Assembly: GCA_009908735.1 (NCBI GenBank)
Contig: JAAAOR010000011.1
Span: 1-22,947 of the forward strand
DNA length: 22,947 bases
Reading direction: 5' to 3'
Source of the DNA: Spirochaetota bacterium
Lineage (GTDB): Bacteria; Spirochaetota; Spirochaetia; DSM-27196; PWMO01
Below the pieces are notes generated by a model, which saw nothing but the letters and a program-made list of their open reading frames with translations, ran no database searches and was not told the DNA's origin. Made by a program: the position numbers and the translations under genes. This document shows positions 3,910 through 20,229 of this stretch, piece by piece (position 1 is the stretch's first letter; each line of letters starts with the position of its first letter).

Positions 3910-4689
3910 TCAAACGCTATTCGAGAACCCGCTTTCGACAACGGTTACGTCCCCTGCGCCGACCTTCACGGTCTCGCCCTGCTCGTCCTCGAGGATGAGC
4001 GCACCGTACATGTCTACGCCGGTCGCCCTGCCCGTTATCACGCCGCCGCGGCTGCGAACACTGATTCTCCGCTCTAGCGTCGTGAGGAGCGCCGTCCAGC
4101 GCTGCTGCAGCCCTTGGTCGAGCCGCCACCGATCGAACTCTCGAGCGACCGCGCCCACGAGCACCTCCCGGTCGATACCCTCCGCATTCGGCGTATGCCG
4201 GGAAATACTCGTCGCACGACGCAACAGCTCCTCCGCTGCGCCGCCTATGGCCGCGAAGTTCAGATCGACGTTTATACCAATTCCCACGATATAGAAAGTC
4301 TTCTCGGCGACGGTCTGATGCTCGATGAGGATGCCGGCCACTTTGCGCCCGTCGATTTCCACATCATTCGGCCACTTCAGCCCCACGGCCCCCTCTACGA
4401 GCGGCTGTATAGCGGCGGCGGTGGCAACCCCCGATGCCTGCGGGAGCCCGGCGGGCGACTCGGCCCCCACCACGAGGCTCATAGCGATCGCCGTGCCGGG
4501 AGGCGTCTCCCAACGCCGTCCGAACCGACCGCGTCCGGCCGTCTGCTCATCGGCAACAACGACGGCGCCCGGCGGCGGGGGACTATTGCTCTGCAGCCAC
4601 GCACGCGCTGCAGCATTGGTACTGTCGACAGACTCGTAGAAATGCACCGGTCGTCCGGCAAGCTCCCGGGTCAGTCGCTCGGCGTTCAT
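3910..4689 (-). CDS. birA: Biotin--[acetyl-CoA-carboxylase] ligase
   Basis: Biotin protein ligase makes biotinyl-AMP and attaches biotin to a lysine of carboxyl-carrier domains in the cytoplasm. The 259-residue product shows STNAAAR (23-29), the biotinyl-AMP loop GRGRFGRRW (52-60), KWPNDV (105-110) and KVAGILIE (116-123), with Lys116 at the position of the conserved active-site lysine. A short SH3-like C-terminal domain follows (about 212-255). There is no N-terminal helix-turn-helix, so it is a monofunctional, non-repressor ligase. The ATG at 4689 overlaps the hslO stop (ATGA), which decides the start; an upstream TTG-type start inside hslO would add 27 residues without family similarity. 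It sits in the operon between hslO and the STAS gene. Confidence 0.94.
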   Translation of the reverse strand: MNAERLTRELAGRPVHFYESVDSTNAAARAWLQSNSPPPPGAVVVADEQTAGRGRFGRRWETPPGTAIAMSLVVGAESPAGLPQASGVATAAAIQPLVEGAVGLKWPNDVEIDGRKVAGILIEHQTVAEKTFYIVGIGINVDLNFAAIGGAAEELLRRATSISRHTPNAEGIDREVLVGAVAREFDRWRLDQGLQQRWTALLTTLERRISVRSRGGVITGRATGVDMYGALILEDEQGETVKVGAGDVTVVESGFSNSV

Positions 4690-5630
4690 CCGGCCTGAGG
4701 GCTCGCCTCGCGGCGAAGATCCGCGACAGCTTCTTTGCTGAACTCGTATGTACTTCCGCAGTTCCAGCACGTCGTTTTTAGCGGAAGTGGTCCGTTTTCC
4801 TGTATGTCGGCGAGCTCTTCCGCTCCGAGCGCCACCAGAAACCGGGAGAAGCGCTCGCGACTACAGGGGCAGCTAAACTCTACCCCACGCGTTCCCACGA
4901 TTTCCGGGGAAAACTCACCGAAATGGTTGTGAACAACGTGTGCCGTCGTATCGCCGGATGAGAAGAGCTGCCCGAGGGACGGAAGGTCCTGTATGATCTC
5001 TTCGAGCTCGACCCTGGTATCTTCGGTCGCGTCCGGCATGGCCTGGACCATTAAACCCCCGGCGCCCGTGACCCTCCCGTCCTCGTCAAACTGTATGCTG
5101 AGGTTGAACGCCGTGGGCGTCTGCTCTGAGCGGAGAAAGTAGTTGGCAAGGTCCTTGGCAATGCTCTGGTATTCCAGTTCGACCTGGCCGGTGTAGGGCA
5201 CGTAGGCTCCCTGCGGAAAACGCGTCACCGAGAGGAAGCCGCTACCGATGAACGGACCGGTATCGAAGCTCTCCAGCGGCTCGTCAAGCTCGATGGAGTC
5301 GTTTCTGAGGTAGCCGCGCACCTCGCCATGGACGTTGGACTCTACGGTAATGCCCCCGACGGGTCCGTCGCCCTGGAAGGACAGCGACATGCGGTCCTTG
5401 CTCTTCATCTGGGAGGTCAGAAGGCCGGCAGCAAGGTATGCATGTCCAAGTAACAGGGTTTCGAGCACGCCGATGTCATGGTTGGCACGCATCTGGTTTA
5501 CCAGTTGCGTGCCGTTGAGCACTGCCCCGCGTACAGATCCTTCGTTCAGAAGGAACACGTCCATGCCGTCTCGGCTTATATCGTCGAGGTGCTGATTCAG
5601 CGTTTCGTCTTTGATTTCGTGAAGTCTCAT
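4686..5630 (-). CDS. hslO: Hsp33 redox-regulated holdase chaperone
   Basis: A 314-residue protein of the Hsp33 family, a cytoplasmic holdase switched on by oxidation and unfolding of a C-terminal zinc domain. The four zinc cysteines are present as CPC (Cys254, Cys256) in SCPCSRERF and CWNC (Cys288, Cys291), the CXC...CXXC pattern of the redox switch. The N-terminal domain shows the expected GDGPVGGITVE and GYLRN segments. The start ATG at 5630 gives MRLHEIKDE and leaves 34 bp to the upstream ADP-ribosylglycohydrolase; a longer version from 5738 would overlap that gene by 74 bp and begins with residues unlike the family. The length is at the upper end of the usual range. It is translationally coupled to birA through an ATGA overlap. 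Confidence 0.95.
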   Translation of the reverse strand: MRLHEIKDETLNQHLDDISRDGMDVFLLNEGSVRGAVLNGTQLVNQMRANHDIGVLETLLLGHAYLAAGLLTSQMKSKDRMSLSFQGDGPVGGITVESNVHGEVRGYLRNDSIELDEPLESFDTGPFIGSGFLSVTRFPQGAYVPYTGQVELEYQSIAKDLANYFLRSEQTPTAFNLSIQFDEDGRVTGAGGLMVQAMPDATEDTRVELEEIIQDLPSLGQLFSSGDTTAHVVHNHFGEFSPEIVGTRGVEFSCPCSRERFSRFLVALGAEELADIQENGPLPLKTTCWNCGSTYEFSKEAVADLRREASPQAG

Positions 5631-5664
5631 GCGGTTTCCAATTTCGACACGTGCGCCCCCTGGG

Positions 5665-6441
5665 TCAAGTCCGAAGAAACCGATCACAGAACCGGTCATT
5701 GATGTCGAGCAATTCGGCCGGCATCCGCTCCCGGACATGCTTCTCGAGCTCGGCTGTTATACGTCGATCGTGCGCCTGGGCAATACTTGCCCCGATACAG
5801 GCCTGGGTATCGCTGTCACCGCCGAGTGATACCGCACTTCTTACCGTATCCTCGACGGTGCGCCCTTCGAGAAACGCAATAATGGATTCGGGCACGGAGC
5901 CTTGACAGGTGACGTCGAAGGAGTAGCCCGGACGTATATCCGATAGGCTGCGCGAGAGATCGTAGCCAAAGCGCTCGGTGATCTCGCCCGCGATGTCGTC
6001 CGGGTCGGTGCCGGTGCGGGCCCGAAACAGGGCGAGCGCTGTTGCCTGCGCGCCCCTGATACCTTCGGCATGACTGTGAGTGCACGCAGCGCTCTGCTCG
6101 GCCTGGCTGAGCACCTCTTCGGCCGTATCAAAGGCCCATCCCACGGGACTCACGCGCATCGCCGAGCCGTTTCCGAAGCTGTTGTAGGGTCCGGCCGCGT
6201 CGGAGATGAACCATCCGCGGAAGTTCCCGCCGTATCCGGCGTGTGGGTAGCGGCGCGCAAGGTCTCGATACAGCTCTGCATAGTTACCGCCGGAGAGGAT
6301 GGCCTCGGCGGTCGCCATCGTGAGCACCGTATCGTCGGTAAACCGGGCGCGTGAGTCGATCAGTGGGAAGTCCGTACTCTTGGTGGGGCGTCCCTCGTAG
6401 ATCGAGCCGACCACATCACCGACAGCTGCTGCGAGTATCAT
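5665..6441 (-). CDS. ADP-ribosylglycohydrolase family protein
   Basis: A 258-residue cytoplasmic protein of the ADP-ribosyl-glycohydrolase (DraG/ARH) family, which uses two metal ions to remove ADP-ribose from proteins or small molecules. It shows the family's N-terminal AAAVGDVVGS, the metal-site motif FTDDT (34-38), GNGSAMR (90-96) and the C-terminal GGDSDTQA (207-214) carrying Asp209 and Asp211. The substrate (arginine-linked ADP-ribose, O-acetyl-ADP-ribose or another) cannot be decided. The ATG at 6441 has a strong GGGAGGG Shine-Dalgarno sequence about six bases upstream; a longer reading to 6600 would invade the divergent gene's promoter side. It is the first gene of a five-gene operon with hslO, birA, STAS and the oxidoreductase. 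No nitrogenase genes or ADP-ribosyltransferase are nearby. Confidence 0.93.
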   Translation of the reverse strand: MILAAAVGDVVGSIYEGRPTKSTDFPLIDSRARFTDDTVLTMATAEAILSGGNYAELYRDLARRYPHAGYGGNFRGWFISDAAGPYNSFGNGSAMRVSPVGWAFDTAEEVLSQAEQSAACTHSHAEGIRGAQATALALFRARTGTDPDDIAGEITERFGYDLSRSLSDIRPGYSFDVTCQGSVPESIIAFLEGRTVEDTVRSAVSLGGDSDTQACIGASIAQAHDRRITAELEKHVRERMPAELLDINDRFCDRFLRT

Positions 6442-6563
6442 TTTGGCCCTCCCTCTCTCAAAACCTACTACGTGGAGGGTTTTTCGTGAACGATCTGTTG
6501 CCGCAGACGACCCGATTGACGAATTTGTATGGAATAAGTACGCGCCACGAAGGAATTGGATTG

Positions 6564-7847
6564 ATGCCGGAGCCCAGTACCCTGACCTTTCATAATACAT
6601 TCACCAAACGACGCGAAGCTTTTGTTCCGAGGTCCAAAGACGCGGTGCGCATGTTCACCTGCGGGCCCTCGGTCTACCGCCGGCAGCACCTGGGAAACTA
6701 TCGGACCTTCCTCTTCGAAGACGTGCTGCAGCGCTACCTCGAATACCGCGGGTATCACGTAAAGCGGGGTATAAACTTCACCGATGTCGAAGACAAGGCT
6801 ATCGAGGAGGCCAAAGCCTACGGGAGGACTCTGACCGAGCTCACCCAACCGGTCATCGACGAGTTCCTGGATTCAGCGCGCAAGCTCGGGATCAAGCTCC
6901 CCGAGGGCGAAATACCCCGAGCCACAACGTCCGTAGAGGAAGCAGTAGGCATCATAGAGACCCTCGTCGAGCGGGGCCACGCCTATCACCACGACGGGAA
7001 CGTCTATTTCGATCCCCTTACCTTCGAGGGCTTCGGTGAGGTGTTCGGACTCGATATGAGCCGGTGGCCCAAGAGACGCTATCGATTCTCGCGCGATACC
7101 TACGAGGGGCTGCGCTGGAACCTCGGCGACTTCATCCTCTGGCACGGCAATCTCGAGGACGACGGGTTCTCCTGGAACACGCGCCTCGGCCGGGGACGCC
7201 CGGCGTGGAACGTTCAGGACCCTGCAATGATCTCGCGCGTACTGGGCTACGAGATCGACATCCACTGCGGCGGCATCGACAACGTGTACCGGCACCACGA
7301 CTACAATCGCGCCGTAATGGAAGGGGTGACGGGAACCGAGTTCTGCCACTACTGGGTTCACGGCGAGCATCTGCTCCTCGAGGGTCGAAAAATGTCGAAG
7401 TCCACCGGCAACGTCATGTATCCAGGGGATCTCCTCGAGAAAGGTTACAGCCCCGAAACATTGCGCTTCGCCCTGATCTACGGGCACTACCGCAAGCGAC
7501 TGAACATGACCGACAATCGCCTCGAAGAGCGTAGCGCGAAGCTCGAAAAGCTCCGTGACCTCGCGGCACGTGCTACCGAACCCATCCGCGCCTCCACGGC
7601 GCGAATCGCGCGTCCGGAGTCCGAGGCTCACCGCAGCGATCGCATAATCGAAGAAATTCCGCGTCAATTCGCGCTCAACATGGACAACGATCTGCAGCTC
7701 GGGCGAGCTGTCGACGACCTCATGGGAGTGCTCGAGCACATCGTCCGCCGCGGCAGAACCTACGGATTAAGCGCCGACCAGGCCGCTCGTGTGCGTGAGC
7801 ATCTCGCGGCCGTGGATAGCGTGCTCAGAGTAATCCTCAGCGGATAG
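6564..7847 (+). CDS. Cysteinyl-tRNA synthetase-like class I ligase, altered zinc site and truncated C-terminus
   Basis: The 427-residue product is clearly related to CysRS: CGPSVY at 33-38, HLGN at 42-45 (HIGH signature), NFTDVEDK at 71-78, DIHCGGID at 232-239 and KMSKS at 276-280. It differs at the zinc site that binds the cysteine thiol. Of the E. coli ligands Cys28, Cys209, His234 and Glu238, the first is kept (Cys33) and the third is kept (His244), but the second is Asp219 (WNVQDPAM replaces WHIECSAM) and the fourth is Asn248 (HHDYN replaces HHENE). It also ends right after the helical bundle, lacking the usual terminal domain (KDW..AD.IRD.L...GTTW) that reads the anticodon. It may charge a different amino acid, act on a small molecule as MshC does, or be a degenerate CysRS. 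The ATG at 6564 follows AAGGA; in-frame sequence upstream is not conserved. Divergent from the ADP-ribosylglycohydrolase gene. Confidence 0.85.
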   Translation: MPEPSTLTFHNTFTKRREAFVPRSKDAVRMFTCGPSVYRRQHLGNYRTFLFEDVLQRYLEYRGYHVKRGINFTDVEDKAIEEAKAYGRTLTELTQPVIDEFLDSARKLGIKLPEGEIPRATTSVEEAVGIIETLVERGHAYHHDGNVYFDPLTFEGFGEVFGLDMSRWPKRRYRFSRDTYEGLRWNLGDFILWHGNLEDDGFSWNTRLGRGRPAWNVQDPAMISRVLGYEIDIHCGGIDNVYRHHDYNRAVMEGVTGTEFCHYWVHGEHLLLEGRKMSKSTGNVMYPGDLLEKGYSPETLRFALIYGHYRKRLNMTDNRLEERSAKLEKLRDLAARATEPIRASTARIARPESEAHRSDRIIEEIPRQFALNMDNDLQLGRAVDDLMGVLEHIVRRGRTYGLSADQAARVREHLAAVDSVLRVILSG

Positions 7848-7867
7848 CTCGGCCCGTCGGCAAACCC

Positions 7868-9800
7868 TCAGAGCGAGAAAAGGTGCCGGACCGCCTGCCG
7901 GTTGCGCTCATTGCGATGGTCTTGACCGTCCTCGGCATACATCGCGTCGATCCGGTCTTTGTGCGCCTCCACGACCTTGAAGCGGACCATCTTCATGCTC
8001 GAGTTGATCATCTTGTTCTTCTCGGTGAACTGTTCCTCGAGGACCTGAAAGGTGGATGGGATCCACTGGGAGGGAAACGCCCGACGGTAGGCCGGGTCTT
8101 CCTCGAAGCGATAGAGTTCGGTGCGAAGCTCATCAAGCAGGGAATCTGCGTCGGCGATGCCATGCTCGGCGATACGCGCCCTAACTTTCTCATCGTCGAG
8201 TGTGATCAGGGCGCCGGTATAGCGGTTGTGGTCGTTGTAGACGAGGGCCTGGTGGATAAGCTCGGAGCTATTGACAATGGCCTCTTCGATTTCCTCCGGC
8301 GAGTACTTCTCGCCGTCGGGAGAGATAAGCAGCGCCTTCTCACGGCCGACAACATACAGATAGCCGTGTTCATCGAAAAAGCCCCGGTCGCCGGTCAGAA
8401 GCATGCCGTCCCGGAGGGTTTCGTCGGTGGCGGACTCGTTTTTGAAGTAACCCTTCATCACGTTCTCACCGCGAATCGCTATCTGCCCGACCTCCCCGAC
8501 CGCGCAGTCGCTGCCGTCCTCGGCAAGGATCCGGCAGTCAATGGAAGCCGCAACCCTGCCCGAGCTTCCGATTTTGTGTGCGGACGGCGTGTTCGAAGAG
8601 ATGACCGGAGCCGCCTCCGTAAGCCCGTAGCCCTGGTAAATCGGCACGCCGATGGCCTTGAAGAACTCCTGCTGCTTGCGGTCGAGAAGTGCTCCCCCGC
8701 CAGAACTGAATATTGCGTCCGAACGTCTGCCGCACTTTGCTGAAGACGATCGCATCGGCGAGCTTGTACGGAAGGTAGTTTTTGAGTCGCGTGAAAAACG
8801 GCGGCTTGTTGTGCACGTCACCGTAGTAGGCAATTCCGGCGGCAAGCCCCGCGTCGAAGAGCTTCTTCGCCGGCCCGCCCTGTGCTGCAACCCCCTCTTT
8901 GATTTTCTTCATGAAGTTTCCGGTGAGTGCAGGTACCGTAAGCAGGAATACCGGCTCGGTTTCCTTCAGATTGGTCGGGATGTTACGGATCGTCGCCATC
9001 CCGCCGCCACGAGCGTCGACAAAATAGATCTGTATGCCGCGGGGAAGTGCAGCGTACAGACCGACGGTATGCGCAAAGGAATGATCGCAGGGAAGAACCA
9101 AAAGCGTGGAATAGCCGCCGTGCGGCACCTGATGAAGGTTCACCGAATCATGCACATTCACGTAGTAGTTCTTGTGCGTGAGCATGATGCCCTTCGGATT
9201 CCCCGTAGTACCAGACGTGTAAGAGATAGTGACCACGTCGTCTTCGGAGATGTCCTCAGCGAGCGCCGAGAGCTCCGCGTCGAGGGCACCGAGTTCCCTG
9301 CCACCGCGTTCGAGCAACTCCGGATAGGAAAACAGCCGCTCGCCCCGGCGTAACCCCGTAGCCTCCTCGATACGCCCGAGCGTGTCGGCGTCGTCGTCGA
9401 GGCACAGCACCATAACCTTGTTCTCGAAGTTACTGAAGACTTCGGTGACCCTGGAGGCGGTGTTCGTCGAAAGAATGACCAGTTTGCTCTCGGAATGGTT
9501 CACGCGAAACGGAATCTCATCGGGCAGCAGCTTTATCGAGAGCGGCACCGAGACTCCGCCGGCGTGGAGAACGGCCAGCTCGCCGACGACCCATTCCTGA
9601 CGGCCCTCGGAGAGGATTGTGACCTTGTCGTCCCGCCCGATTCCGATCGATCGAAGTCCGGCCGCGAGTGCCCGCACGGCGTCGCGGACCTCGTTGAAAG
9701 TCATGGGTCTCCACCCAGCGTCCGTCTTTTGCCATACGTACGGCGTTTCCAGGAATTCTTCCGCTGCCCGCTCGAGCATAGCCAAAACCGTTCGTCGCAT
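7868..9800 (-). pseudogene. Long-chain acyl-CoA synthetase (AMP-forming), frameshifted
   Basis: Two reading frames together encode a complete AMP-binding enzyme of the long-chain fatty acyl-CoA ligase type. The first part starts at ATG 9800 (MRRTVLAMLERAAEEF) and contains the P-loop TSGTTGNPKGIMLTHKN. After FGRNIQF near 8703-8708 similarity jumps to the next frame: SGGGALLD, IYQGYGLTEAAPVIS, LLTGDRGFF, VVGREKALL, and KNKMINSSMKM carrying the C-terminal catalytic lysine, ending at a TGA at 7868-7870. The whole span is 1933 bases, one more than a multiple of three. Because SGGGALLD is intact in the second frame back to its serine, the lesion is probably loss of 2 (or 5) bases just before it; a miscount in the five-G run next to it is less consistent. 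It could be a true mutation or a sequencing error. Divergent from the coiled-coil gene at 9884; convergent with the CysRS-like gene, 20 bp away. Confidence 0.82.
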
Positions 9801-9840
9801 GACTACGAGTTTATGGGCAACTTGACCGATAATCAAGATA

Positions 9841-9868
9841 TTGCATAAGCTCCAAAATGCGTTAGAGT
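9841..9868 (+). promoter_or_regulatory. Possible sigma-70-type promoter for the coiled-coil protein gene
   Basis: TTGCAT at 9841-9846 and TAGAGT at 9863-9868 are separated by 16 bases, a fair match to -35 and -10 boxes. The start codon at 9884 lies only 15 bases beyond the -10 box and has no clear Shine-Dalgarno sequence, so the leader would be very short. It is a moderate match in an 83-bp divergent gap and could be chance. Confidence 0.28.
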
Positions 9869-9883
9869 ACGAGTGCAAACCAT

Positions 9884-12253
9884 ATGTCCGGACTTCTGAA
9901 GCGCGGTAACACGTACCGCACACGACTCCTCGTCGAAGACAACGTAAAGCCGAGCGACCTCCTCGAGGCGGACGACTCAGGACTCTCCGCGGAAGACAGA
10001 AGCGAGATTCTCGCCGAGATCGACCGCATGACATCCGACAGCCGTGCGGGGCTCTCTCCCGACGCTCTGACCCTTTCCCGCGCGACACGGCGCGGGTTTG
10101 TGTTTCCCCTCATCGTAAACCTTGCGATGGCGGTCATCGTCGCGGGCGGTCTCCTCGGGCTCTACGCCTACTTCCAGCAGGAAGAGCAGGCGCAGATAGA
10201 AGCCCAGCGCGAGGGGGCGAGCGCACGGGCAGAGCTGCTTCGTCGAATACAGGAGCAGGCCCAGGCCGAGCTCGAGCAAAAAGAGCAAGAAATTGCCGAC
10301 ATACAGCAGCGGCTCGGCGACATCGAGGCGCGACGCGCCGCCCTCGAAACCAACCTCGAGGGGGAGCTCGCCCGCCGCGAGGCGGAACTGCGCGCCGAGC
10401 TCGAGGCCGAGCTTGCCGCGGAGCGCAGCCGCCTCGAAGACGAGGAGGTCGGGGAAGGCGCGATCAATGAGCGGATCGCAATTCTCGAGGCAGAGGGTAA
10501 CGCGCGTATCGAGGCTGAGCTCGCCGAGCTTCGCGCTCAGGTCGAAGCGGAACAGGCCGAGCTCGATGAGACGCTTGCCGAGCTTGAGTCGGAGTTCCAA
10601 GGAGAGCTGCAACAGCTCGAGCAAGACCGGGCACAGATTATCGACCAGGCACAGCAGCGCGAGGCGCAGTTGCGCAGTCAGTTCGAGCAGCAGCTCAGCG
10701 CCTCACAGGAAGAACTCACCGACGCACAGGCCGAGCTCGGTGCGCTCTCCGACCGCCGCGAGCGCGAGCAGCAAGCGGCCAATCAGATTGTCGGTTACTA
10801 CGATGAGATCCGCACAGAGATTCGCAGCAATGCCTACGGAGAAGCGCTCGGGACCATCGAGCAGCTTCGAAGCTATCTATCTGAAGAATCGGTAGCAAGC
10901 CTCCCTGCGGTCGCCCAACGCCGTGAAGCGGAGCTTTTCATACTATCCTCCCTCGAGCAGCTCGTCGAGGAGCAACGCACCGCCCGCTCGACGGATACCG
11001 ACGCCCTTATCGCCCAGTCACGCACAGTTCAGGAGGCCACACGCCTGGTAAACGAGGGAAACGCCGCATTCGAGGCGGGCGATATCGAAGAGGCGGAAGC
11101 TCTCTACAACGAGGCACTCAACCTCATCCCGGCGGTAGCCGAGGGGCACCGGTATTTCGTCTCTGCGCAGCAAGACGTGATAGAGGACCTTCGGGATCAG
11201 CAGATCGAGCGCTCCGAGGCGGCGGAGGCTGCCATTTCCGAGGCGAGCGCATCATTCGCGGCGGCTGATTACGGCGCAGCCCTCGCCGCTTACCAGGAGG
11301 CAATCGCCCTGCTGCCCCAGGATGCCGAGCCCGCCGAGGAGGTCATCTCCCGAATTCGAGCGTCCGCCGTAGCAATCTCTGACGCGCAGACCACGGAGCA
11401 GCAGACCGAGGCTGCAGCACCGCTTTTCGCGGCCGCCGAAGAGGCCCGCGACGACGGCAACTACCAGGCGGCCGTCGACACTTACCTCCAGGTCGCTGCG
11501 CAGTATCCGCGCAGCCGACAGATGGCGCAGCTCCCCGGCGCCGTTCGCTCCACCATAACGCGCGCCACCGGGGAGCTGCAGGATCGGATCGACACTCTGC
11601 AGACGGACATCGCCGAGCTCGAAACCCAGAACCAGGAGCTTCAGGAGGGCTCCGGTGAGCGGCAGGAGCAGCTGGCCTCGCTGCGCACCCGCAATGCGGA
11701 GCTACAGACTCGCGTCGAGGAACTTCGCACCGAGCTCGATGAAACCGGAGAGGAGCTCGACGCGGCTCTCAGTGCGGCCGAAACACGCGATGCGCAGCCG
11801 GCGGAAGCGGACTCGCCTGGAGAAACGGCTCCCGTGGTGACCCCCGAGCTTTCGCAGGAGATCGCTCAACTGCGCGAGGTAGAGGAAGACTACGAGGCGC
11901 TTCGCCGTGCCTATCTTGCCTACGCAAACCGCGAGGATGACATCCTCGAGTCCGGAACAGACGCCGCCCGGCTTCAAACCAAGCTTCTCTTCGACTCGTT
12001 CCTCGCGTCGAGGCCCGTGCGCGAGGCGCTGCCGGGCCTCCGGGATCGCATAAAAGCTTACGACCGCGCCTTCGAGGAAGTAGGTCGCGAGACGGCCCTA
12101 CTCGACACCGTCGATATCATCTACGAGCTCTCCGCCTACGAGACGACCGAGCGCAAGCTCACCTACCTTGCCGAACAGAGGCGGAATACGAGCGACCCCA
12201 ACATGACGGCATTTCTCGACGAGCTCGAGGTTCTGATACGGGAAAGCAGTTGA
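9884..12253 (+). CDS. Membrane-anchored coiled-coil/TPR protein of unknown function
   Basis: A 789-residue protein I cannot assign to a named family. Residues 1-70 are a hydrophilic, probably cytoplasmic N-terminus. Residues 72-97 form one transmembrane helix (GFVFPLIVNLAMAVIVAGG at its core). Residues 98-300 are a long acidic, Glu/Gln/Ala-rich coiled coil. Helical-pair repeats resembling TPRs occur at about 386-420 (EGNAAFEAGDIEEAEALYNEA), 450-480 (AAADYGAALAAYQEAIALLP) and 514-545 (DDGNYQAAVDTYLQVAAQYP). A second coiled coil spans about 560-632, followed by a Pro/Ala/Glu linker and a helical C-terminal domain (655-789). The positive residues before the helix suggest the large domain is periplasmic. 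Such a layout suits a scaffold spanning the envelope. It converges on the five-gene operon ending at 12305. Confidence 0.9.
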   Translation: MSGLLKRGNTYRTRLLVEDNVKPSDLLEADDSGLSAEDRSEILAEIDRMTSDSRAGLSPDALTLSRATRRGFVFPLIVNLAMAVIVAGGLLGLYAYFQQEEQAQIEAQREGASARAELLRRIQEQAQAELEQKEQEIADIQQRLGDIEARRAALETNLEGELARREAELRAELEAELAAERSRLEDEEVGEGAINERIAILEAEGNARIEAELAELRAQVEAEQAELDETLAELESEFQGELQQLEQDRAQIIDQAQQREAQLRSQFEQQLSASQEELTDAQAELGALSDRREREQQAANQIVGYYDEIRTEIRSNAYGEALGTIEQLRSYLSEESVASLPAVAQRREAELFILSSLEQLVEEQRTARSTDTDALIAQSRTVQEATRLVNEGNAAFEAGDIEEAEALYNEALNLIPAVAEGHRYFVSAQQDVIEDLRDQQIERSEAAEAAISEASASFAAADYGAALAAYQEAIALLPQDAEPAEEVISRIRASAVAISDAQTTEQQTEAAAPLFAAAEEARDDGNYQAAVDTYLQVAAQYPRSRQMAQLPGAVRSTITRATGELQDRIDTLQTDIAELETQNQELQEGSGERQEQLASLRTRNAELQTRVEELRTELDETGEELDAALSAAETRDAQPAEADSPGETAPVVTPELSQEIAQLREVEEDYEALRRAYLAYANREDDILESGTDAARLQTKLLFDSFLASRPVREALPGLRDRIKAYDRAFEEVGRETALLDTVDIIYELSAYETTERKLTYLAEQRRNTSDPNMTAFLDELEVLIRESS

Positions 12254-16614: not shown

Positions 16615-18525
16615 TTAGTGCTCAAACTCCTCCATCCGCGGGATATCGTGCTTGGTAATCGAACATAGTATTTTATCGGTCAGCGGCGTCACACTCGAAA
16701 TACGGTTTGCCTGCTTTTCGACGATGCGCTCGAAGAGATTCCGGATGAAACGCCCATTCCCGAAGCCTTTGTCGCGACGACGATAGAAGTGGGTGATAAG
16801 CCGAAGCAACTCCCGCCTCGCGCCCTGAGTCAGGGTAAAGGAGGAGTTTTCGGCGAAGATGTTGAAGATTTGCAGCAGCTCCTGCGGCGCGTAGTGATCG
16901 AAGTAGAAATAGCGGCTGAAGCGCGACTGCAGCCCGGGATTACTGTCGATGAAGTCTTGCATCTCGTCGGGATACCCGGCAACGATGACCACGAGACGGT
17001 CGCGGTGGTCCTCCATACGCTTGAGAAGGGTGTCGATCGCCTCCTGACCGAAATCCGAACCGGCCGAGCGCGGGCTCAGCGTGTAGGCCTCATCTATAAA
17101 AAGCACCCCGTCGAGTGCCTGCTGCACCACCTCATCCACCTGAATCGCGGTCTGCCCTACGTAGCCCGCCACGAGTCCCGCACGGTCCGTCTCCACCATG
17201 TGGCCCTGCTCGAGAAGCCCCAGCGATTTGTAGACCTTCCCGAGATAGCGAGCGATCGTGGTCTTCCCGGTGCCCGGCGGACCGTAGAATACTGCGTGCT
17301 TGGAGAACGGAGTGACGGGTAGGCCTCGGCGCTCTCGCTCCTTGTGAACCTTGATAAGGTTGACGAAGGTCTCTATCTGCCCCTTCACCTTCTTCATCCC
17401 GATGAGGTTGTTGATCTTCTCCATCACCTCTTCGAGACTCTCGGCCTGCTCCTCGGAGACCGTCACAGCTTGCTGCGCGGCAGACTGCCCATCCGCCGCC
17501 GAGGTGCCGTCGACCTGCTCACCGTAGATGAGCTTGCGGATGCTCTTTATCTGCCGGGACTCCGCCTCGCTTACCGTGCCGTCGGCTTTGATCGCGACCT
17601 GCGCAAAACTGAAGAACACCGCGGCCAGCTTATCGAAATGCGAGCTGTCCTCGCGTTTGTCGTAGGACTTCAGGTAGGAGAGCGACTTCAGAGAGCGCGT
17701 ATTCGGCACTCCCTTCATCTTCTTGATTTCGTTGTGAAACAGGTCCCAGTACTCGAGGATGCTGCGGCGCTGGTGCAGCGGCAAGCTGTCGTAGCGGAAT
17801 ATATCGACGATGACGTCGCGGTCACTAACCAGGCGCTGGCGCAGGTACATGAGCACCATGATCACGAAAAGCCGCGTCTCCTCGGAAACGGACTTGGAGC
17901 TTCCCACGCAGCGGTATGAGACGAGAAAGAGGTCGTCGATGAGTTGCTGCAGAAAGGCCGGCTCGTTGTTGAACTGCTTGTACTCGTTTATCGCGCGGAT
18001 GATGCGTTGGGCTTCCTTGTGCAGGAAGTTCAGGTTCGTAAGCTTCTCGGGGCTTTTGCGACCGGGCCCTTCGCTCGACTCGGAGCGAAGGTCCTCCACG
18101 TGCAACAGATCATCGCCAATACTTCCACGTACGCTCTCGAGGAAGGAATCAGACTGCCCCCCTCGTTTCGTGGAGGTGAGTACGCTCTGCCCCGTACCGC
18201 GATGCAGGGTTATCTTCGCACTCTGATCGGTGCGCCGAACGCTGATGGCGGTAATCTCTTCGAAGATGAGCGTGTCGGCCGCGGTCGCCGTGCCGCCGTT
18301 GAGAAGAAAGAGCACGCGTCGGTCGGTTATGCAGAGAATTCCCGGCGCGCCCGAGCCCGAGGCGGCGATATGATCGGCCGAATAGAAGCCTTCAAGCAGA
18401 TCGACGAGAATCTCATCTTCGTCGAGCACCTGATGAAAGGTGGTGAGGATATTCTTCTTGAAGGAAACGCCGCCCCAGTTTCGGATATGTCCTAGCTGGG
18501 TCTCGATTTCCTGCTGAAGTGGCAT
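16615..18525 (-). CDS. AAA+ ATPase of CbxX/CbbX type with PH-like and TerB-like N-terminal regions
   Basis: A 636-residue cytoplasmic protein. The C-terminal third (about 365-630) is an AAA+ module like CbxX/CfxQ: LIGMKKVKGQI at 374-384, Walker A GPPGTGKT at 415-422, pore-loop-like AGYVGQT at 453-459, Walker B GVLFIDEA at 473-480 and arginine-finger region LQSRFSRYF at 532-540. Residues about 35-110 resemble a bacterial PH/YokE-like domain (DEILVDLLEGFY, GILCITDRRVLFL), and about 298-335 a TerB-like helical segment (FFSFAQVAIKADGTVSEAE). CbbX remodels Rubisco, but no Rubisco is here; related proteins remodel other assemblies, so the client is unknown. ATG 18525 follows GGGAGGGG about 11 bases upstream. 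It lies 36 bp after the MinD-like gene and 2 bp before the cyclase gene. Confidence 0.92.
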   Translation of the reverse strand: MPLQQEIETQLGHIRNWGGVSFKKNILTTFHQVLDEDEILVDLLEGFYSADHIAASGSGAPGILCITDRRVLFLLNGGTATAADTLIFEEITAISVRRTDQSAKITLHRGTGQSVLTSTKRGGQSDSFLESVRGSIGDDLLHVEDLRSESSEGPGRKSPEKLTNLNFLHKEAQRIIRAINEYKQFNNEPAFLQQLIDDLFLVSYRCVGSSKSVSEETRLFVIMVLMYLRQRLVSDRDVIVDIFRYDSLPLHQRRSILEYWDLFHNEIKKMKGVPNTRSLKSLSYLKSYDKREDSSHFDKLAAVFFSFAQVAIKADGTVSEAESRQIKSIRKLIYGEQVDGTSAADGQSAAQQAVTVSEEQAESLEEVMEKINNLIGMKKVKGQIETFVNLIKVHKERERRGLPVTPFSKHAVFYGPPGTGKTTIARYLGKVYKSLGLLEQGHMVETDRAGLVAGYVGQTAIQVDEVVQQALDGVLFIDEAYTLSPRSAGSDFGQEAIDTLLKRMEDHRDRLVVIVAGYPDEMQDFIDSNPGLQSRFSRYFYFDHYAPQELLQIFNIFAENSSFTLTQGARRELLRLITHFYRRRDKGFGNGRFIRNLFERIVEKQANRISSVTPLTDKILCSITKHDIPRMEEFEH

Positions 18526-18561
18526 CCGAGTCGATCCCCTCCCAGCGACCGCTGGCGCTCA

Positions 18562-20229
18562 TTATAGACCATCATCATCCGCATCGCCAACTCTCTGTGG
18601 CGGGGAATCAAAGCTCTGCGCAAGGGCCTTCGCGCCGTCTTGTATAGTGCGCGCCGCCGTGGTATGTGCCATGCCGACGGTAATGCCGAGGCCGCTGTTG
18701 GCAGTGTCGTGCATCCACGTGGTCAAAAGCTTCAGGTAAGCCGTACGGTGCACCTCTCGGGTTTTTGAACGCAACACCAGCGGCTGCAGGTGCTGCGTCT
18801 CGATAAGTTTTCGTAACTGGCCGATTACGATAGGAAAAAACCGCTTCACGAGCTCGAAAAAGCGGCGGTGATACTGTTCATCGTGCTCGATGAGAGAGCG
18901 GATTTGGCGGTAGCGATCCCGCACGAGCTTGCCCTGCTCATCGCGGCGCACAGGCACGAAAGAGCGGAGGAGTCCTCGGATGCGATCTGAGGCCAGCAGC
19001 TTATGGACCGAAACGTAGAGAAGCAGGCACCCGGCCGCATTACGAAGCGCCGGACGCGCCCGCCTCTTGTCACGAGCGAGCGCGCGGAGCGCGGCGATGG
19101 TGCGCTTCTCGAGGGCTCGGCCGCGCGCACTCTGATGCTCCCGCGAGCTGTCCCCCCAGGTATCGAGAACCGTGTTGATGAGATCCCGCGCGTGTACCGC
19201 GGCGGCACGCACCCGGTCAGCGGCAAGCGACTCCAGGTACTTCAGCAGCACCGAGCGCTCATCGGCGGTCAGAACCTCCACACCCCCGGCATTGTCAGTC
19301 CGCCGGGCGCCAACGATGCCGCTTGACTGCATCTCACCGAGGTAAGACTCAAGGCGCTTGAGGGTCTTGCCGGTATCGATGGGGCCGGTATCACGTACAA
19401 GTCGCGTGCGAAGCAGGTGCCGGGCCGGTGAGTAATGCCCGTCCACGGTGCGTATCGACGGGGTGAGCTCCTCCACTATCATCTCGAGCATGCCGAGCAT
19501 CCGATGGTAGAGCGTAGCCTCGAACGAGAACCTCGTCTGAAGAAGGTCCAGCGACGGATCGTGGGGCACGAAGGCGATATCGACGATCCGAGCGGCCTCC
19601 GAGGTTGCGATACGCTGCTGCGGTCCCACGTAGCGATTGTAGTTGGTGATGACCGCTCGCGGGTCGAAGCGCCCCTCCTGTAGCGAGTTGTACTTGTTGT
19701 GCCATAGCAGGATTGAAGCCTGCGGCGCAACGTCAATCGCGGCTCGAATGTAGCCGCCCGCGGAGACGTGCGAGGTCGGCTCCGGCTGCACGACCACCAG
19801 GATGGTCTCAACAAGGGGCAGAAAGGCCAGGTTTTCGTCGTGATCGATGCCCGCAGGCATATCGAGGAGTACAATGTCGTAGCGCGTCTCGATCTGTTCC
19901 CGCAGGTGCCGGAAGAGGAGCGTGCGCATCGCGATGCTCTCCTCACTTCGCTCCGAGGGACGAGGGAAGAGCAGATCGAGGCGATCGAACACGCGGTAGG
20001 AAAAGCGCGAGAGATCCAGTCCTTTTCGACGCACCTCCTCGGTGCTGTAGTCAAAACGGGTATTTGCCACGTCGAGAATCGTCGTCAAGTTGGATAGCGG
20101 GTCCAGGTCGGCAAGCGCCACGCGCATCCCGCTCTTTGCGTACTGAACAGCGAGGTTCAAGGCCGTCGTGGATTTCCCTACGCCGCCTTTTCCGGATGCC
20201 ACGGCTACCGATCGCCTGAGTCGTTCCAT
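18562..20229 (-). CDS. MinD/ParA-like ATPase with long C-terminal extension
   Basis: A 555-residue protein whose first ~265 residues are a deviant Walker-A ATPase of the MinD/ParA/FlhG group: SGKGGVGKST at 12-21 with signature Lys14 and Lys19, ADLDPLSNLT at 40-49, and Walker B VLLDMPAG at 120-127. Such proteins dimerise on ATP and position or regulate cellular structures. Residues 270-555 are mostly helical, Arg-rich and unfamiliar to me (for example RTIAALRALARDKRRARPAL region and RRFFELVKRFFPIVIGQLRKL); typical MinD or ParA proteins stop near residue 260-290. I see no clear amphipathic membrane-targeting helix at the C-terminus. The start is ATG 20229; no strong Shine-Dalgarno sequence is seen. 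First gene of the five-gene operon running to 12305. Confidence 0.92.
   Translation of the reverse strand: MERLRRSVAVASGKGGVGKSTTALNLAVQYAKSGMRVALADLDPLSNLTTILDVANTRFDYSTEEVRRKGLDLSRFSYRVFDRLDLLFPRPSERSEESIAMRTLLFRHLREQIETRYDIVLLDMPAGIDHDENLAFLPLVETILVVVQPEPTSHVSAGGYIRAAIDVAPQASILLWHNKYNSLQEGRFDPRAVITNYNRYVGPQQRIATSEAARIVDIAFVPHDPSLDLLQTRFSFEATLYHRMLGMLEMIVEELTPSIRTVDGHYSPARHLLRTRLVRDTGPIDTGKTLKRLESYLGEMQSSGIVGARRTDNAGGVEVLTADERSVLLKYLESLAADRVRAAAVHARDLINTVLDTWGDSSREHQSARGRALEKRTIAALRALARDKRRARPALRNAAGCLLLYVSVHKLLASDRIRGLLRSFVPVRRDEQGKLVRDRYRQIRSLIEHDEQYHRRFFELVKRFFPIVIGQLRKLIETQHLQPLVLRSKTREVHRTAYLKLLTTWMHDTANSGLGITVGMAHTTAARTIQDGAKALAQSFDSPPQRVGDADDDGL

What the first reader, a model, noticed from the sequence alone, without database searches (positions are those of the whole stretch)
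6564..7847. CysRS-like enzyme with two zinc ligands replaced and no anticodon-binding domain
Seen: HIGH-like and KMSKS signatures are intact, yet the Cys209 position is Asp219 and the Glu238 position is Asn248, while Cys33 and His244 remain; the protein stops at 427 residues, before the usual C-terminal domain. Known: in CysRS the zinc binds the substrate thiol and gives specificity, and MshC is a CysRS relative that lacks the tRNA domain and joins cysteine to a sugar, but MshC keeps the zinc site. Inference: this protein may activate another amino acid or acylate something other than tRNA-Cys, making it a candidate new ligase branch.
Basis: partly seen in the sequence, partly recalled or inferred. 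Interest (0 to 1): 0.8.

Follow-up and report, generated by a model that had tools for sequence, protein, structure and literature searches.

The report
CysRS-derived ligase family, rebuilt pocket
A shortened relative of the enzyme that loads cysteine onto its tRNA, with a consistently altered metal-binding pocket, occurs in anaerobic bacteria beside the normal enzyme and probably attaches an amino acid to something other than the cysteine tRNA, though to what is unknown.

Summary
ORF 6564-7847 (427 aa) is a CysRS homologue with Cys33, Asp219, His244 and Asn248 at E. coli positions Cys28, Cys209, His234 and Glu238, and no C-terminal anticodon-binding domain. It is not a decayed copy: in 242 retrieved proteins Cys33, Asp219 and His244 are invariant and position 248 is Asn/Thr/Ser in 241. 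The family forms one clade apart from CysRS in a quick tree. Of 50 genomes holding a member, 46 also hold a separate canonical CysRS.

MshC, the known cysteine ligase, also lacks the Glu ligand (HHEYS; here HHDY[N/T/S]), so only Cys-to-Asp is unusual. And Cys, Asp, His could still bind a metal: the site looks re-tuned, not lost.

Best reading: an adenylate-forming ligase that works like MshC on an unknown amino acid and acceptor. It is not MshC (174 bits, cut-off 485), and no tRNA gene lies in 51 loci, unlike the selC*/selB*/cysS* operon. An RNA acceptor stays possible. Substrate, acceptor and metal are unproven; gene neighbours help little. Eight searches of an open-access library showed no description of the family.

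The parts
6564..7847 (+). CysRS-derived, ABD-less ligase-family gene, 427 aa
6660..6662 (+). Cys33 (E. coli Cys28), metal-ligand position, kept
   Evidence: 242 of 242
6687..6698 (+). HLGN, the HIGH signature (residues 42-45)
   Evidence: H42 and N45 in 242 of 242
7065..7121 (+). Family-specific segment W168-N186 (W168, D178, Y180, W185, N186 invariant in 242)
7218..7220 (+). Asp219 (E. coli Cys209), the unusual replacement
7293..7307 (+). H244-H245-D246-Y247-N248: His ligand kept, Glu238 position Asn, MshC-like Tyr before it
7389..7403 (+). KMSKS (residues 276-280)
7581..7844 (+). C-terminal helical bundle (residues about 340-427); no anticodon-binding domain follows

Best explanation
A member of a conserved, CysRS-derived family, found here in spirochaetes and deltaproteobacteria, that forms an aminoacyl-adenylate and passes the amino acid to an acceptor other than elongator tRNA-Cys; it works like MshC. 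Shown by sequence: fold and adenylation motifs; loss of the anticodon-binding domain; an amino-acid pocket changed in concert, with the Cys-Cys-His-(Glu) metal site turned into Cys-Asp-His-(Asn/Thr/Ser) and an MshC-like Tyr before the last position; a separate canonical CysRS in nearly all hosts examined. Inferred: a metal held by Cys33, Asp219 and His244 touches the substrate side chain; the acceptor is the amine or hydroxyl of a small molecule or a protein; the amino acid is cysteine or another small polar one.
For: Adenylation core: H42, N45, T73, W215, D239 and K279 each in 242 of 242. Missing domain. Clade apart from CysRS: 30 of 30 family rows on one side of a branch, SH-aLRT 100, in a quick tree of 64 rows. 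Separate CysRS in 46 of 50 genomes. MshC shares the missing domain and the Tyr-then-small-polar replacement of Asn-Glu. 26 positions at least 95% fixed in 242 family rows and held by under 10% of 51 CysRS, many beside the ligands. No tRNA gene in 51 loci, 828 kb.
Against: No substrate, acceptor or metal was measured. MshC keeps the second Cys, this family does not. The helical bundle is as conserved relative to the catalytic part as in CysRS (0.34/0.60 against 0.32/0.55 pairwise identity) and the catalytic part is more positive (+1.8 against -1.6 net charge per 100 aa), which does not argue for lost RNA binding. There is no linked biosynthetic pathway. Four of 50 member-holding genomes showed no other CysRS.
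Confidence: 0.45

Rival explanations
1. It acylates an RNA: a special tRNA, as CysRS* is held to do with selC* tRNA, or a modified tRNA nucleoside, as GluQRS does.
For: Truncated synthetases with RNA acceptors exist (CysRS*: PMC7609411, PMC9437257 and PMC11415595, passages; GluQRS: PMC9437257 passage). The helical bundle is kept and as conserved as in CysRS, and the catalytic part is more positive.
Against: No tRNA gene in 51 family loci (control: one tRNA in 381 kb of canonical-cysS loci). No anticodon domain. No selC-like RNA at Rfam gathering scores in 20 loci searched.
Confidence: 0.3
2. It is a back-up CysRS for zinc shortage: it still charges tRNA-Cys, with a changed or absent metal.
For: Zur-linked CysRS paralogues are known (PMC2770081, passages).
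Against: That paper says such CysRS paralogues keep their zinc residues, and one beside a repressor and a GTP-binding protein on a Klebsiella plasmid reads CCHE. No Zur or COG0523 gene was recognised beside family members in the neighbours I read, by eye and for 19 proteins by Pfam; not a full scan. The anticodon domain is missing.
Confidence: 0.1
3. It no longer makes an adenylate: a regulator or a binding protein made from CysRS.
For: Such aaRS-like regulators are known (recalled). No pathway is linked to the gene.
Against: The HLGN and KMSKS signatures and the pocket residues T73, W215 and D239 are kept (242 of 242 for H42, N45, T73, W215, D239, K279).
Confidence: 0.1

Closest known systems
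Canonical cysteinyl-tRNA synthetase (CysRS, cysS; TIGR00435, PF01406)
   Different: No anticodon-binding domain; Cys209 is Asp and Glu238 is Asn/Thr/Ser; 26 family-specific positions; 300 bits against a cut-off of 340; a CysRS coexists in 46 of 50 genomes
MshC, mycothiol cysteine ligase (TIGR03447)
   Different: MshC keeps the second Cys (WHVEC); 174 bits against a cut-off of 485
CysRS* (cysS*) of Desulfobacterales
   Same: A CysRS paralogue without anticodon-binding domain, beside a canonical CysRS (reviews, passages)
   Different: CysRS* sits with selC* tRNA and selB*; no tRNA gene was found near this family. No CysRS* sequence was compared
GluQRS (YadB) and EpmA (PoxA)
   Same: A synthetase catalytic core without anticodon domain put to a new acceptor (GluQRS: passage; EpmA recalled)
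   Different: Other parent synthetases; no evidence here for either acceptor

Membership tests
Canonical CysRS | Catalytic domain with HIGH and KMSKS | tested here: met
   PF01406 254 bits; HLGN and KMSKS
Canonical CysRS | Cys-Cys-His-Glu metal-ligand set | tested here: not met
   Cys-Asp-His-Asn; Asp in 242 of 242 relatives; 58 of 59 CysRS-like ORFs CCHE, the other -CHE
Canonical CysRS | C-terminal anticodon-binding domain | tested here: not met
   Aligns to 1u0b residues 1-397 of 461
Canonical CysRS | NCBI equivalog cut-off of TIGR00435 | tested here: not met
   300.4 bits, cut-off 340
Canonical CysRS | Charges tRNA-Cys with cysteine | not testable with these tools
   Needs assay
MshC | NCBI equivalog cut-off of TIGR03447 | tested here: not met
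   174 bits, cut-off 485.1
MshC | Second metal Cys kept | tested here: not met
   Asp219 here, Cys in MshC
MshC | No anticodon-binding domain | tested here: met
   MshC chains of 413-414 residues align over most of their length, to residue 412
MshC | Joins cysteine to GlcN-Ins; other mycothiol genes in the host | not tested
   No assay; the other mycothiol genes were not searched
CysRS* (cysS*) | Lies with selC* tRNA and selB* | tested here: not met
   No tRNA by ARAGORN in 51 loci including the window; an unusual tRNA could be missed; Rfam at gathering scores on 20 loci found none. selB was not searched by model
CysRS* (cysS*) | Lacks anticodon-binding domain | tested here: met
   feature from reviews
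CysRS* (cysS*) | Sequence kinship with known CysRS* | not tested
   The original paper is not held; no CysRS* sequence was fetched

The most novel reading that the evidence does not exclude
An undescribed ligase family in anaerobic bacteria uses a Cys-Asp-His metal site, made from the CysRS zinc site by one ligand swap, to select an amino acid other than cysteine, and joins it to an unknown acceptor, giving a new metabolite or a new protein or RNA modification.
Probability: 0.35. Interest if true: 0.82.

Novelty: new variant of a known kind. Interest (0 to 1): 0.6.

Why it matters
CysRS chooses its amino acid through its zinc site. A natural family in which one ligand is always Asp, mostly beside a normal CysRS, is a ready experiment on how that choice can be changed. 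It also marks a probable unknown ligation step in spirochaetes and deltaproteobacteria. Many members carry the name 'cysteinyl-tRNA synthetase' in their source (for example P0004, P0025; for example P0125), which is probably a wrong label.

Tried and rejected
Decayed or misassembled copy: rejected, since the pattern is fixed in 242 of 242 retrieved relatives and members lie in two genomes whose contig 1 is about genome-sized, G611 (4.54 Mb) and G627 (4.99 Mb). Sole CysRS of its host: rejected for 46 of 50 genomes; the other four (G002, G004, G191, G232) showed none, which may be incompleteness. Mobile or phage gene: no listed plasmid or phage hit exceeds 37.7% identity to P0001 (plasmids: 20 best and 60 spread rows of 624 records; phages: 20 of 20 records); most of those hits were not checked at the ligand columns.

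Function from neighbours: blocks are kept within lineages but none spans them. With 19 neighbour queries against 20 family regions and 20 canonical-cysS regions of the same genomes, source locus left out, loci hit were (family/control): OsmC-hydrolase 4/0, hibernation-type factor 4/0 (two queries), CNNM 2/0, ABC permease 4/0, ABC ATPase 6/3, rubrerythrin 1/0, disulfide reductase-rhodanese 1/0, Hsp20 0/2, the other ten 0/0. The 4/0 and 2/0 rows are each one lineage's block, and the queries came from these neighbourhoods, so this is no test of significance; redox stress stays a hint. A riboswitch or T-box that could name the amino acid: Rfam at gathering scores on 20 loci gave two matches, a TPP riboswitch in L009 about 1.8 kb past the family gene and a group II intron piece in L087 about 4.2 kb away, neither beside the gene. 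MshC in the tree: no full MshC sequence was obtained; two actinobacterial records gave only sub-threshold matches, and only the MshC stretch printed was seen (its first Cys region was not printed). The careful tree did not finish, so the quick one is used. In one search the 51 CysRS were picked partly by a motif with Cys, so the Cys209 column there is circular; one search repeats it by BLAST score. P0122 and P0123 overlap at 100% identity (same protein), and the 242 are the best hits of two searches plus the two queries, so they do not probe the family's edge. One search drew the same sample as apart from its centre. Five of 51 loci (L070, L086, L128, L136, L139) were not anchored, so their gene order was not printed there.

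Full report
What is there. The ORF at 6564-7847 encodes 427 aa. It matches the CysRS catalytic domain PF01406 at 254 bits and the cysS model TIGR00435 at 300 bits, below its cut-off of 340; the MshC model gives 174 bits against 485. Cys33, Asp219, His244 and Asn248 fall on E. coli Cys28, Cys209, His234 and Glu238. HLGN and KMSKS are intact.

It is a family. Two searches, with P0001 and with a 49% identical member from L089 (identity), gave 242 rows: the best 120 hits of each plus the two queries; two rows are the same protein. Cys33, Asp219, His244, His245, Asp246 and Tyr247 are in 242 of 242; position 248 is Asn 111, Thr 92, Ser 38, Leu 1. Lengths run from 321 to 479, with 239 of 242 at 440 or less. 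At E up to 1e-100 a member was found in 13 of 296 genomes of the phylum of G003, a spirochaete MAG, 10 of 297 of the phylum of G008, a deltaproteobacterial MAG, 22 of 39 of the order of G008 and 12 of 46 of the order of G115. Each draw includes its centre, and each centre was known to hold a member; a laxer cut-off might find more. That these are anaerobes is general knowledge, not a test.

It stands beside CysRS. The window's genome is not held. In genomes holding a member, a separate canonical CysRS match was found in 11 of 13 and 35 of 37, 46 of 50 in all. Sorted by BLAST score only, 59 ORFs closer to E. coli CysRS than to P0001 read Cys-Cys-His with Asn-Glu at 247-248; one of them lacks the first Cys because its frame is interrupted. 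They include long frames and ten named records, and two are second copies. All 15 ORFs closer to P0001 read Cys-Asp-His with Tyr-[Asn/Thr/Ser]. In a quick tree of 64 chosen rows the 30 family rows form one side of a branch with SH-aLRT 100 and length 1.28; the careful tree did not finish.

The pocket changed in concert. Twenty-six positions are at least 95% fixed in the 242 family rows and held by under 10% of 51 CysRS. Several sit next to the ligands: F31 and S36 around Cys33; N216, Q218 and D219; N240, R243, D246 and Y247 around His244. A second group (W168, P169, R174, G182, W185, G188, H194) lies in an altered segment. The Cys209 column of that call is circular because of how the CysRS rows were chosen; one search is not.

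The MshC parallel. In the alignment to M. smegmatis MshC the motifs read WHVEC and HHEYS. MshC keeps the second Cys but has Ser at the Glu238 column and Tyr before it, as this family has Tyr and Asn/Thr/Ser. The Glu change is therefore no mark of lost cysteine binding. A structural survey lists the zinc shell of CysRS as Cys, Cys, His and the substrate Cys (PMC7387524, passages). On that view this family differs by one ligand, Cys to Asp, and Cys33, Asp219 and His244 may hold a metal. That is inference.

Against tRNA independence. The helical bundle is no less conserved, relative to the catalytic part, than in CysRS (0.34/0.60 against 0.32/0.55), and the catalytic part carries more positive charge (+1.8 against -1.6 per 100 aa). 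So binding of an RNA acceptor is not excluded and is kept as the main rival. On checking I lowered the main reading for this.

Surroundings. In the window an ADP-ribosylglycohydrolase (5665-6492) and Hsp33 (4686-5738) run the other way upstream and an AMP-binding enzyme (7868-8890) converges from downstream. In the order of G008, 21 of 22 member loci were fetched with flanks; by ORF clustering an alpha/beta hydrolase-OsmC fusion lies in 18 of 21, a hibernation-type factor (S30AE plus cold-shock domain) in 14 and a CNNM/CorC transporter in 14 (domains of one example each). Five spirochaete loci have an ABC ATPase and a permease directly downstream and L011 an ABC ATPase (Pfam for L074; the permease by eye). 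A rubrerythrin-like gene follows in L084, L142 and, 0.5 kb on, L086. L087 has a superoxide dismutase and a rubrerythrin; L084 a rhodanese-fused disulfide reductase, a DUF488 and a hemerythrin protein. These point loosely to redox stress, but the cross-locus check was thin. No tRNA gene lies in 51 family loci of 828 kb; the same program found one in 381 kb of control loci.

Literature. Reviews list MshC and CysRS* as CysRS paralogues with other roles (PMC9437257, PMC7609411, PMC11415595; passages). A study of class I aaRS-like ligases treats MshC and a MetRS paralogue (PMC2922099, passages). Zur-linked CysRS paralogues keep the zinc residues (PMC2770081, passages). Eight searches of the open-access library showed no description of this family in their listings; most subscription papers are not held.

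How it most likely works. ATP and an amino acid bind in the HLGN/KMSKS core; a metal held by Cys33, Asp219 and His244 touches the side chain; the adenylate is attacked by an amine or hydroxyl of an acceptor, perhaps held near the family-specific W168-N186 segment. The first step follows from the conserved motifs; the metal, the amino acid and the acceptor are inferred. It works like MshC but fails tested features of both MshC and CysRS, so I file it as a new variant of CysRS-derived ligases.

Noticed in passing
L028, L029 (also L123, L124 by tree placement; frames of 759-889 aa): Proteins with a cysteine-synthase-like N-terminal part (by eye, L028 and L029) fused to a CysRS part. In L028 and L029 the metal ligands are CCHE but KMSKS reads KMSQD or is lost. 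Four form their own branch in the quick tree. The other long frames were not read.
   Followed up: partly
L176 (Klebsiella pneumoniae plasmid NZ_CP047701.1, 184209-188384): A plasmid-borne cysS lies beside a 'transcriptional repressor' and a 'GTP-binding protein'; its metal ligands are CCHE. This recalls zinc-shortage islands. 503 of 624 plasmid records with a CysRS-like match are Klebsiella.
   Followed up: partly
window 7868-10088 (-): An AMP-binding enzyme lies in two overlapping frames (7868-8890 and 8538-10088), while the close relative L001 has one 748-aa frame at 5946-8192; this looks like a frame break or a sequence error.
   Followed up: no
L001:3389-5866 and L011:35-2521: A LonB-like protease (Pfam AAA_32, Lon_C) lies next to the family gene in a spirochaete MAG and two genes upstream in a Desulfobacteraceae MAG, with a Usp protein between in the latter. 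The window lacks it at that place.
   Followed up: partly
L027 (G001:C149): A second CysRS-like frame with one internal TAG, in a MAG that also holds an open canonical one, L022; a pseudogene or a mixed bin.
   Followed up: no
window 16615-20229; L003, L004, L006: An AAA+ ATPase gene and a MinD/ParA-like gene (names by eye) lie about 9 kb from the family gene in the window and directly after it, convergent, in three spirochaete loci.
   Followed up: no
51 family loci, 828 kb, window included: Not one tRNA gene by ARAGORN; one was found in 381 kb of control loci. Whether this is a real depletion was not tested.
   Followed up: partly
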